From the NCBI RefSeq assembly GCF_000515235.1, contig NZ_KI911558.1:873762-937761 (forward strand): a stretch of 64,000 nt of DNA, written 5' to 3'. A model generated the notes under the pieces. That model searched no databases, was not told where the DNA came from, and worked only from the letters and a program-made list of their open reading frames with translations. Within the stretch, counting starts at the first letter, position 1. The number at the start of each line of letters is the position of its first letter. The stretch is from Synechococcus sp. CC9616 (GTDB lineage: Bacteria; Cyanobacteriota; Cyanobacteriia; PCC-6307; Cyanobiaceae). This document shows positions 41,724 through 45,152 of the stretch, piece by piece. The position numbers were made by a program, and so were the translations under genes.

Positions 41724-41745
41724 CAAATCAGACGTCAGGTTTGAT
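41722..41745. promoter_or_regulatory. Interrupted palindrome overlapping the devB start
   Basis: Six-base outer arms ATCAAA/TTTGAT flank a central GACGTC; the bases between do not pair. The central core matches that of the palindrome upstream of gnd. Location over the start codon would fit an operator or translation-initiation element, but the match is imperfect. Confidence 0.25.
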
Positions 41746-41981
41746 CACAGGCCGGATCGAGGGTTCGACTCAAAATGGTCAACTCTCAATTAATAACACC
41801 ATAGAGGCACTAACGAGGTTTGGAGTGAACAGGACGCCTTTAATCCAATTGAGACATGACCGGGAATAGCACTGGCGAAGCAAAACTGATGTCGACTAGC
41901 TTGAGACCAGCAAGACACATTTGAATTCGACTGATATGCGTGTCTTCGATCACACACTTAAGCGTGCATTTATCAATTAAT
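41746..41981. other. A+T-rich intergenic region upstream of devB
   Basis: A 236-base gap between the acyltransferase stop and the exporter start, all on the minus strand. It probably holds the devBCA promoter. A short frame (41840-42067) overlaps the acyltransferase end and has no support. No clear terminator was found after the acyltransferase gene, so read-through into devBCA is possible. Confidence 0.35.
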
Positions 41982-42917
41982 TTAAGACCCCATTGAAGCT
42001 GTCGCCGCAGCCAACCGAGAGGCAAGCATTTCGAGCGTAAAGAGTGCATTTTTTGAATCATTTTCAATGCATTCTAAAAACTGACGCCGACTTAGAATCA
42101 TCACTTCCAAATCCGTTGAAGCAATCACATTTGCCGATCGTGGAACGTTCAAGAGCAACGACAGCTCTCCAAACAAATCGCCCTTCTTAAGAGAAGCAAC
42201 GACCTGATCTTCAAGAGAACCATTATCATTTGAGACTGTAACTTTAGCATTACCATTTACAATAAAATACGCACAATCTCCCGGAGCACCTTGCTCAAGA
42301 ATAACCTCACCTTCATCGAAATACTCACGCAGATATGGTTCCATAAAACCAACTATTTTCTGCCTTGCTACAAAATCAATAAAGCTGCCACGGATATCTT
42401 CCATGCAGATCATCATTGGTTGTATCGCAAGATTATAGTGGGACGATTGAGTGACATCACCGATACTTTCAAAACCTATTCTCGCCATCAAACGCTTCAA
42501 CGCAGGATTAAAAGGAGCTACGCAATGAGTGATGCCATTTCGATGGGCCCAGTAATATGTCAGCATCATCATGCCATTTAATATTTTTAAATTACCGCGG
42601 GTGTCTGGATCCACTGCCAGCTGACTCAGCGAAGCAGTGATCGCACCAGCAGGCAGCAGGGGACGGAAGTCAAAATAATCATCCGCTGGGAACCCGATCG
42701 TCGCATCATCGCGATTCAGCCGTGCAGTGCCGACAACATTGTCACCACTGAGGGCCACCATCAAGACTGATGTTTCACAGCAATCGAAGCGATCAATCAA
42801 GCAACGGTCTGGTCTGGGCTCAAAGCGAGCATCAGCTTCAACAAACACTTTATGGCGCAACCTTAAGCACGCATTTCTCTCTGCTGGAGTTTCAGCAAGC
42901 TTAATCGTGATGCTCAT
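41982..42917 (-). CDS. GNAT/FeeM-like acyltransferase fused to a cyclic-nucleotide-binding domain
   Basis: A 311-residue two-domain protein. Residues 1-175 resemble the autoinducer/N-acyl amino acid synthase branch of GNAT enzymes: RHKVFVEADARF near 21-32, DRF, then VVGTARLNRD (61-70) and a helix-strand set ending MMICMED. Residues about 190-300 form a Crp-type cyclic-nucleotide-binding domain with an intact phosphate-binding cassette (F249-G250-E251 and R260-S261-A262). The acyl donor and acceptor are unknown. Its ATG overlaps the upstream methyltransferase stop as ATGA. The block is visibly A+T-rich, suggesting transfer. A fused acyltransferase and cNMP sensor exists in mycobacterial Pat, but with the domains in the opposite order. 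Confidence 0.82.
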   Translation of the reverse strand: MSITIKLAETPAERNACLRLRHKVFVEADARFEPRPDRCLIDRFDCCETSVLMVALSGDNVVGTARLNRDDATIGFPADDYFDFRPLLPAGAITASLSQLAVDPDTRGNLKILNGMMMLTYYWAHRNGITHCVAPFNPALKRLMARIGFESIGDVTQSSHYNLAIQPMMICMEDIRGSFIDFVARQKIVGFMEPYLREYFDEGEVILEQGAPGDCAYFIVNGNAKVTVSNDNGSLEDQVVASLKKGDLFGELSLLLNVPRSANVIASTDLEVMILSRRQFLECIENDSKNALFTLEMLASRLAAATASMGS

Positions 42918-43822
42918 GAGAGATTATTCTGAGATTCTTGCTTCGAAGCGTTCACAACATATTCACCTTTATGAAAACGTTTACGCCTGAGATTAGGCAT
43001 TAACTGAGACGCAATCTGCCCATCATTGGCACTCTCATCCATGCGAAGTCCATGTTTTTCAAGAACTAAGGAAATAGAACTTTGCGGACAAAACCATGCG
43101 AGTGATTCACTTTTTGCTCGCAGGTAAAGCCTTAAAATCAATCCACAATCATTTTGTGGTGACTGCAAGGGTTCGAGGGAGGTGAATACAAATCGGCAAT
43201 CGCCAACAGCCGATTCACGAATAGAAACGAGAAGATTACTCACATCATTCTCACTTAAATACATCAGAACCCCTTCGCAGACAAAGACAGAGCTCAGACC
43301 CGAATCAAAATTTGAATTGGACGACAAAGCCTCACTCAGACTCTGCTGAGAAAAATCAACAGCACTAAAATGAAGATTAGGGCGCTCAATGACTTGAGGG
43401 TCAAGGGCATTCTGTTTATCTTTACTCGTGGCAGGATGATCAATCTCTAAAAACTCAACCTCCTTAAACTCCTTTGACAACATGTATGCAAGCATGTCAA
43501 ATCCAGCTCCCAAAATAATAACTTGCTTGACACCAGAAGCAATTGCCTGTCGAACAGAGTACTCAATATATGTCTTCCTAAGTACATAGTGAAATGACAT
43601 CCCTGGTAGTGTTAGACGTTCGAACAATTTCAACAGCAGCCTTACAGCAGGATTGCGCAACTGCCTTAGTAGTTTTCGACCATCGGACGAGGACTCTAGA
43701 ATAATCTCGCTACTCTCAAGCAACTGAACTGGAACATGTTCCCGGTCTGGAGAGTAGCGACCGCTATAGACAATTCCTTGTGCAACTGTGTACGCCGTGG
43801 AGCTGGCCTCATCAGTTTTCAT
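42914..43822 (-). CDS. LCMT-family class I methyltransferase
   Basis: A 302-residue SAM-dependent methyltransferase of the leucine carboxyl methyltransferase (Ppm1/TIGR00027-like) family. SAM motif I is VIILGAGFDMLAYML (about 100-114); EIDHPATSKDKQ (about 126-137) and VCEGVLMYLSEN (about 184-195) are family hallmarks. Members methylate carboxyl or hydroxyl groups on peptides and polyketides. Its stop overlaps the acyltransferase start (ATGA), so the two are translationally coupled and probably act in one pathway, for instance acylation and methylation of the same product. A ribosome-site-like AAAGG lies about eight bases before the ATG. Confidence 0.88.
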   Translation of the reverse strand: MKTDEASSTAYTVAQGIVYSGRYSPDREHVPVQLLESSEIILESSSDGRKLLRQLRNPAVRLLLKLFERLTLPGMSFHYVLRKTYIEYSVRQAIASGVKQVIILGAGFDMLAYMLSKEFKEVEFLEIDHPATSKDKQNALDPQVIERPNLHFSAVDFSQQSLSEALSSNSNFDSGLSSVFVCEGVLMYLSENDVSNLLVSIRESAVGDCRFVFTSLEPLQSPQNDCGLILRLYLRAKSESLAWFCPQSSISLVLEKHGLRMDESANDGQIASQLMPNLRRKRFHKGEYVVNASKQESQNNLS

Positions 43823-44024
43823 GAAATTTACCCTTTAGTATTAATTTAACAAACCAGACTGGCCAAATCAAATCAATTCAGATTTACCTAAGGTTTAGAT
43901 GGGAACGACATTAAAATTTTGTGGCCCGCTCAAGTCCCCGGAAGGCACCTGTGAATTATCTCAAGGCTTAGGCAGTAGCGTTGAATCTTTTTGATCTGAT
44001 TGACACGTGAATAGCAAAATCTCA
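43823..44024. promoter_or_regulatory. A+T-rich promoter region of the methyltransferase-acyltransferase pair
   Basis: A 202-base gap. On the minus strand TTAAATTAATACTAAAGG leads to the methyltransferase ATG; TAATACT resembles a -10 box and AAAGG a ribosome site. They are very close together, so at most one works as read. No operator-like palindrome was found. Confidence 0.35.
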
Positions 44025-45101
44025 TCATTGCAATGCTTGAAAAGCGAAGTAAAAACCAAAAAATACTTTCCCAGACAAATAATGAACAAGTGTCACGCCA
44101 ACAAGATTTTTTGTGCGATTATAAATGTATCCAAATAGCAGCCCACTCAAAAATGTTGCAACGATGGGCATAAAACCGAGCGGGTAGTGCAATACGGCAA
44201 AAATAGCCGAAGCCAAGACCACTGAAAGCGTCGATCGCATAGAATTCTGAATAACATTAAAAAGGGAGCTTTGAATCGCTCCACGTACAAAAAATTCTTG
44301 CAAATAACAATGGATCAAATAAATGTAGCTTAGAGGTGACGCAAGATTCATATAGCCAACAACATCGCCAACTGATATTTGAGTAAAATTTTTCAGGCTT
44401 TGAATCAAAACAAAAAGACCAATGATCAAAGCAGCACTGCCAAAAATACCGTCCTGTATGCTTCGATTTAAATTCGAGAGTGTCACCCCAAAATTAGACA
44501 ACGGCTGCCGAGTAGATGCAATAAAAATTAGTGGTGGTGGTATAACAAATAGGATAAACAACCAGCTCCACAAAGAATCTGTCGGATATTGAATGGATGC
44601 CATAAACGACAGAAAAAACATTCCAATACTGATTCCAGAAAGGCAGAGAACGATCGTGGCTGAAGCAGTTATCGCTTGCTTCAACAAGCCAATTAATTCA
44701 TGATTTGTTGTTTCAAGTTTTTTTGCTGTATCCACCGCAGAGTTAATCAGTAGATGTTCGTACAATTCAGGAAATGTCTTGATTTTATCGATCGGGAAGA
44801 CCAGAATTGAAGTTTTGCAACCAGCCTCTACATTCATCGAAGCTGGTCTCCTCAGCAACGATTGGCCGCCAACCAAATCACCAACCTTTGTTAATGTAGC
44901 GACAACAAATTCGTCATTCTCTGACTGGTCAAAAACTCGCAAGTTTCCATCAATCAAGACAGCTATAAAATCATGAACTTCCCCTTTTTGAATAAAGACC
45001 TCAGGATCGTCATATGCATGCTCGGACGATATTGTCATAAGGCTCGCAACCTGTGCCTCACTCAGCCCTTCAAATAGAATTGAGTGACTGATGTCATTCA
45101 T
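44025..45101 (-). CDS. Cyclic-nucleotide-like domain fused to a CPBP-family membrane protein
   Basis: A 358-residue protein. Residues about 10-125 form a Crp-type beta-roll, but the phosphate-binding cassette is degenerate (GGQSLLRRPASMNV at about 78-91 lacks the expected Glu and Arg). Residues about 145-358 contain about seven membrane helices of the CPBP (Rce1-like) protease family. Its motifs are also altered: EExxxR reads Q268-E269-FFV-R273, FxxxH is F301...H305, and the last motif keeps H340 without the expected Asn. The CAA codon for Q268 was checked. It may be a pseudo-protease, an immunity-type or a sensor protein. The DNA is strongly A+T-rich. Confidence 0.8.
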   Translation of the reverse strand: MNDISHSILFEGLSEAQVASLMTISSEHAYDDPEVFIQKGEVHDFIAVLIDGNLRVFDQSENDEFVVATLTKVGDLVGGQSLLRRPASMNVEAGCKTSILVFPIDKIKTFPELYEHLLINSAVDTAKKLETTNHELIGLLKQAITASATIVLCLSGISIGMFFLSFMASIQYPTDSLWSWLFILFVIPPPLIFIASTRQPLSNFGVTLSNLNRSIQDGIFGSAALIIGLFVLIQSLKNFTQISVGDVVGYMNLASPLSYIYLIHCYLQEFFVRGAIQSSLFNVIQNSMRSTLSVVLASAIFAVLHYPLGFMPIVATFLSGLLFGYIYNRTKNLVGVTLVHYLSGKVFFGFYFAFQALQ

Positions 45102-45152
45102 CGGAGATGGAAATTGGTCAAACTATGCCGCTAACCTAACAAGATTTAGGCT

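What the first reader, a model, noticed from the sequence alone, without database searches (positions are those of the whole stretch)
41982..42917. GNAT/FeeM-like acyltransferase with a C-terminal cyclic-nucleotide domain
Seen: a GNAT-type domain at 1-175 followed by a Crp-type domain whose phosphate-binding cassette keeps Glu251 and Arg260. Known: mycobacterial Pat joins a cNMP domain and a GNAT, but in the opposite order and acting on lysines. Inference: acyl transfer here is switched by cAMP or cGMP, linking signalling to synthesis of a small product.
Basis: partly seen in the sequence, partly recalled or inferred. Interest (0 to 1): 0.6.

Follow-up and report, generated by a model that had tools for sequence, protein, structure and literature searches.

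The report
Cyclic-nucleotide-gated acyltransferase on mobile cassette
A marine cyanobacterium carries a gene, shared with one Prochlorococcus cell as part of a small mobile two-gene unit, that joins a fatty-acyl-transferring enzyme domain to a well-preserved sensor for cyclic nucleotides such as cAMP; the idea has a precedent (the cAMP-activated enzyme NasP), but an expected catalytic residue is missing and the setting is new.

Summary
The 311-aa ORF, on the MINUS strand at 41982-42917, has an N-terminal FeeM-type GNAT (Pfam FeeM, 8e-28; closest solved fold FeeM 2G0B, Z 18) and a C-terminal cyclic-nucleotide-binding domain (6e-22) with an intact phosphate-binding cassette (E251, R260). [quoted passage not shown] It is untested here, and two findings weigh on it. 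The catalytic Glu95 of FeeM is Ser96. A near-identical copy (92% aa) sits in a Prochlorococcus single-cell genome whose genus almost wholly lacks class III cyclases, although the window's own genome has two. The same GNAT-then-cNMP order with an intact cassette occurs in 10 further, distant proteins from several phyla. Here the gene is coupled (ATGA) to an LCM-type carboxyl methyltransferase. The two ORFs alone form an 1854-bp unit shared at 89.5% DNA identity by two unrelated loci, and both hosts have empty sites in relatives. [quoted passage not shown] New variant of a known kind.

The parts
41982..42917 (-). GNAT (FeeM-type) + cNMP-binding protein, 311 aa
   Evidence: ORF; Pfam FeeM and cNMP_binding; AlphaFold model and fold matches
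42411..42872 (-). FeeM/GNAT domain, residues 16-169
   Evidence: PF21926 E 8.1e-28; 2G0B Z 18.1 over 168 residues
42630..42632 (-). Ser96, at the position of FeeM catalytic Glu95
   Evidence: FeeM AEVVQFA against ASLSQLA; catalytic Glu from PMC4897644
42057..42326 (-). cyclic-nucleotide-binding domain, residues 198-287
   Evidence: PF00027 E 5.8e-22; CRP/PKA/PKG folds
42132..42173 (-). phosphate-binding cassette FGELSLLLNVPRSA (residues 249-262) with E251 and R260
   Evidence: Glu and Arg kept in 12 of 12 two-domain proteins
42914..43822 (-). LCM-type SAM-dependent methyltransferase, 302 aa, overlapping the acyltransferase start by ATGA
   Evidence: PF04072 E 3.3e-30; TIGR00027 103 bits, cut-off 93.55; junction
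41976..43829 (-). 1854-bp two-gene unit shared with Prochlorococcus L098 at 89.5% nucleotide identity
44025..45101 (-). degenerate cNMP domain + CPBP/Rce1-like membrane protein, 358 aa; lies in the same insert but absent from L098
   Evidence: PF00027 and PF02517; cassette reads GGQSLLRRPASMNV, no Glu or Arg
41727..45152 (.). insertion between pcyA and devB, low G+C
   Evidence: pcyA-devB adjacent in all 29 genus relatives examined; genes in the insert GC 0.40-0.45, window 0.589

Best explanation
It is a FeeM-type N-acyltransferase fused to a C-terminal cyclic-nucleotide sensor, carried with a translationally coupled LCM-type methyltransferase as a mobile two-gene unit. Most likely mechanism: cAMP (cGMP less likely) binds the C-terminal domain and changes the activity of the N-terminal GNAT, which moves an acyl group, probably from acyl-ACP, to the amine of an amino acid or similar small molecule; the methyltransferase then caps the carboxylate, giving something like an N-acyl amino-acid methyl ester. 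Shown: both domains and folds, intact cassette, coupling to the methyltransferase, mobility, purifying selection, cyclases in the window's genome. Inferred: ligand, direction of control, substrates, methyl-ester product.
For: FeeM PF21926 8e-28 and cNMP 6e-22. FeeM 2G0B is the top structural match for the GNAT half, cAMP-bound CRPs for the sensor half. Cassette Glu and Arg kept in 12 of 12 GNAT-cNMP proteins although ten of them are only 20-28% identical to this one overall. No glutamate at position 253 of the kind that marks nucleoside-binding trypanosome PKA (PMC10959531). Two CHASE2 class III cyclases in the genome. The ORFs overlap by ATGA here and by 1 nt in L098, with dN/dS 0.15 and 0.18. 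NasP is reported to be directly activated by cAMP (PMC4897644). LCM family members methylate carboxylates (own knowledge: PP2A leucine carboxyl methyltransferase, TcmP).
Against: FeeM Glu95, whose counterpart is essential in the relative Nas354 (PMC4897644), is Ser96 here. The second host's genus lacks class III cyclases in 60 of 61 genomes and that host has no Crp-type receptor beyond NtcA. No LCM-FeeM pairing was found elsewhere. The GNAT sits on a long branch apart from other two-domain proteins. Substrates cannot be told from sequence.
Confidence: 0.45

Rival explanations
1. [quoted passage not shown] With Glu95 replaced by Ser it is a different acyltransferase or a degenerate one, and the cNMP domain works on a partner or on another reaction.
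For: Ser96 in place of FeeM Glu95 in this protein and in its 92% copy; the other two-domain relatives also lack Glu there. Nas354 E103A lost activity (PMC4897644).
Against: dN/dS over the GNAT half is 0.10, lower than over the cNMP half at 0.25. R21, D42, D45 and R66 are kept in most relatives. Many GNATs need no such base (own knowledge).
Confidence: 0.25
2. It is a cAMP-regulated protein lysine acyltransferase like mycobacterial Pat, with the domains in the opposite order.
For: Same two domain types; the cNMP half matches Pat (NF058543 E 5.6e-8; 4orf Z 15.6 over residues 179-294).
Against: The Pat match covers the cNMP domain only, at 32 bits against a cut-off of 460. The GNAT half matches FeeM far better than Acetyltransf_1 (8e-28 against 0.007). 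Coupling to a carboxyl methyltransferase does not suggest protein substrates.
Confidence: 0.12
3. The cNMP domain senses something other than the cell's own class III cyclase product, or is locked, so that in Prochlorococcus the enzyme is permanently on or off.
For: L098's genome and 60 of 61 of its genus have no class III cyclase. Literature: most Prochlorococcus lack class III cyclases and cAMP receptors (PMC4284465).
Against: The cassette is fully canonical. Most divergence from L098 may predate the transfer, so the Prochlorococcus copy need not have been tested by selection there. Other cyclase classes were not tested. The window's genome has cyclases.
Confidence: 0.18

Closest known systems
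NasP (Clardy & Brady 2007, J Bacteriol 189:6487, PMC1951892)
   Same: N-acyl amino acid synthase reported to be directly activated by cAMP; acylates phenylalanine (PMC5643525).
   Different: Paper and sequence not held, so domain order, identity and active site could not be compared. From an uncultured beta-proteobacterium; described as an antibiotic biosynthetic enzyme.
[quoted passage not shown]
   Same: Same GNAT fold (Z 18.1) and Pfam family
   Different: The FeeM chain is about 190 residues, without a cNMP domain; its catalytic Glu95 is Ser96 here; about 15% identity
Nas343/Nas354 (PMC4897644)
   Same: FeeM-type domain at the N-terminus and a nucleotide-second-messenger domain at the C-terminus
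   Different: Their sensor is PilZ (c-di-GMP), not cNMP; they keep the catalytic Glu (E103)
Mycobacterial Pat (4orf)
   Same: cNMP domain and GNAT in one chain; cAMP-regulated
   Different: Opposite order, different GNAT subfamily, acts on protein lysines
GNAT-cNMP proteins of about 370-430 aa in Omnitrophota, Sericytochromatia/Tanganyikabacteria, Pseudomonadota and Leptospiraceae (L048, L049, L050, L065, L099, L100, L106, L117, L121, L122)
   Same: Same domain order; same intact cassette Glu/Arg; FeeM-type GNAT without Glu95
   Different: 20-28% identity; longer linker between the domains; no LCM partner seen; no function known to me

Membership tests
FeeM Pfam family PF21926 | profile score over the gathering cut-off | tested here: met
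   97.6 bits against cut-off 27
FeeM Pfam family PF21926 | GNAT fold like FeeM | tested here: met
   2G0B Z 18.1, 3.0 A, 168 residues
[quoted passage not shown]
   Ser96 (role of Glu)
[quoted passage not shown]
   needs an assay
NasP-like cAMP-activated synthase | FeeM-type domain and cNMP domain in one chain | tested here: inconclusive
   both domains present here, but the NasP sequence and paper are not held, so its make-up and order could not be compared
NasP-like cAMP-activated synthase | activity raised by cAMP | not testable with these tools
   needs an assay; cassette intact
Cyclic-nucleotide-binding domain PF00027 | profile over cut-off and cassette Glu + Arg | tested here: met
   77.9 bits against 27.5; E251, R260
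CRP/FNR regulators | HTH after the cNMP domain | tested here: not met
   no HTH hit; chain ends at residue 311
Mycobacterial Pat NF058543 | score over equivalog cut-off | tested here: not met
   32 bits against 460
OlsB ornithine N-acyltransferases NF052554 | score over equivalog cut-off | tested here: not met
   25 bits against 350; OlsB-type rows form a separate starred group
TIGR00027 / LCM methyltransferases (partner gene) | score over cut-off | tested here: met
   103.3 bits against 93.55; LCM 105.8 against 22.3

The most novel reading that the evidence does not exclude
A precise two-gene mobile module that brings a cyclic-nucleotide-gated lipid-amide synthase and a methyl-capping enzyme to marine picocyanobacteria, including a Prochlorococcus lineage that makes no class III cyclic nucleotide itself, so that the cell's lipid-amide output would depend on cyclic nucleotide from outside (neighbours, phage, host debris).
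Probability: 0.08. Interest if true: 0.75.

Novelty: new variant of a known kind. Interest (0 to 1): 0.42.

Why it matters
[quoted passage not shown] Here the same principle appears as an architecture found in several phyla whose sensor site is conserved while the rest diverges, and as a mobile unit with a methyltransferase in marine picocyanobacteria, whose chemical signals are little known. [quoted passage not shown]

Tried and rejected
Viral origin: no relative of the GNAT half, the full-length alignment or the methyltransferase in viral contigs. Plasmid matches H1 and H2 looked like two-domain hits but are lone cNMP proteins. Conserved LCM-FeeM pairing in other cyanobacteria: only two remote LCM relatives, neither beside a FeeM gene. 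Integration repeat at the tRNA-Cys in L098: no repeat of 10 nt or more of the tRNA end at the other junction. Single origin of the fusion: the tree neither shows nor excludes it, long branches. An alignment with L047 was too diverse to search with. NasP paper not held. Rhodobacteraceae hits to the GNAT half are OlsB-type, not the same thing.

Full report
Observation. Its 311 residues hold a FeeM-type GNAT domain (PF21926, E 8.1e-28, residues 16-169) and a cyclic-nucleotide-binding domain (PF00027, E 5.8e-22, residues 198-287). Residues 251 and 260 are Glu and Arg in FGELSLLLNVPRSANV, a textbook phosphate-binding cassette. An AlphaFold model (mean pLDDT 74.9) matches FeeM 2G0B (Z 18.1 over 168 residues) with its N-terminal half and cAMP-bound CRPs (MtbCRP 3i54, Z 17.5) with its C-terminal half. 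There is no DNA-binding domain.

Active site. In FeeM the catalytic Glu95 lies in AEVVQFA; a profile alignment places ASLSQLA of this protein there, so Glu95 becomes Ser96 (residue numbering worked out from the chain shown there). The role of that Glu was shown by mutation in the relative Nas354 (PMC4897644). Other two-domain relatives also lack Glu there, whereas OlsB-type proteins keep it. [quoted passage not shown] R21, D42, D45 and R66, kept in most relatives, argue that the site is still an acyltransferase site, but this is inference.

Sensor. The cassette Glu and Arg are present in all twelve GNAT-cNMP proteins collected (this one, its close copy, and ten of 20-28% identity from Omnitrophota, Sericytochromatia/Tanganyikabacteria, Pseudomonadota and Leptospiraceae). 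Arg is followed by Ser or Thr (Ser here). There is no Glu at the position that gives nucleoside binding in trypanosome PKA (PMC10959531). Ligand binding is therefore likely; cAMP is favoured over cGMP only by general knowledge (E. coli CRP also has Arg-Ser).

Neighbourhood and mobility. The gene overlaps by ATGA the end of an LCM-type methyltransferase (42914-43822; PF04072 and TIGR00027 above cut-offs). Both, plus a degenerate-cNMP/CPBP membrane protein (44025-45101), form an insert whose genes have G+C 0.40-0.45 in a window of 0.589. In all 29 relatives of the genus examined pcyA and devB are adjacent; only here do three genes lie between. Of 400 sampled genomes of the family only this one carries the gene. 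The one close copy is in an uncultured Prochlorococcus single-cell genome (L098): the two ORFs match at 89.5% over 1854 bp, beginning and ending within a few bases of the ORFs, at a different locus in a low-G+C genome (contig mostly 0.25-0.35). Relatives of that genome show an empty site, and the insert (about 5045-8175 of L098) ends about 14 bp from the 3' end of a tRNA-Cys. dN/dS is 0.15 for the acyltransferase and 0.18 for the methyltransferase, so both genes have been under purifying selection for most of the time since they diverged, though not necessarily in both present hosts.

Signalling context. The window's genome encodes two CHASE2-class III cyclases, a Crp-type regulator and a cNMP-MscS channel; one cyclase, the channel and the regulator are clustered at C1:1846338-1850351. 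The Prochlorococcus host and 60 of 61 genomes of its genus have no class III cyclase, and its only other cNMP-type protein is recognisable as NtcA by sequence (my reading of the sequence). This agrees with the literature on picocyanobacteria (PMC4284465). Hence the switch has a plausible ligand in the window's organism but not an obvious one in the other host.

Mechanism. The best-supported account is a cAMP-gated acyltransferase acting on a small amine, whose product is then carboxyl-methylated. NasP, reported as directly activated by cAMP (cited in PMC4897644; original not held), is the precedent. [quoted passage not shown] The acyl donor, acceptor, direction of control and methyl-ester step are inferred. 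Rivals are a changed or lost catalytic activity (Ser96), a Pat-like protein acyltransferase, and a sensor with another ligand.

Novelty. The control principle is known (NasP; Nas343/354 with PilZ). What is new here is the intact sensor across distant GNAT-cNMP proteins, the missing catalytic Glu, the coupled methyltransferase, and the mobile two-gene unit in marine picocyanobacteria. I file it as a new variant of a known kind.

Noticed in passing
window 44025-45101 (-): cNMP domain whose cassette has lost Glu and Arg (GGQSLLRRPASMNV) fused to a CPBP/Rce1-like membrane protein whose EExxxR motif reads QEFFVR; perhaps a degenerate sensor-protease.
   Followed up: partly
L048, L049 (and L065 of genome G049): In Sericytochromatia-like genomes GNAT-cNMP genes lie beside motA- and motB-like genes (confirmed by Pfam for L048); a possible link between acylation and motility.
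   Followed up: partly
L121:2122-4155: In a Leptospiraceae MAG the GNAT-cNMP gene follows slr1658- and slr1659-superfamily regulators.
   Followed up: partly
L171:3-2166: In another cyanobacterium an LCM/TIGR00027 methyltransferase sits next to a cNMP-bearing family 2B encapsulin shell gene.
   Followed up: partly
window genome G000:C1:1846338-1850351 (L031, L037, L034): CHASE2-cyclase, cNMP-MscS channel and Crp-type regulator clustered: a cyclic-nucleotide locus in a marine Synechococcus-like genome.
   Followed up: partly
L098:5045-8175: Insert beside tRNA-Cys also carries a DUF1353 gene; relatives such as L141 and L144 match only a short stretch around the tRNA end there, so the site may be an integration hot spot.
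   Followed up: partly
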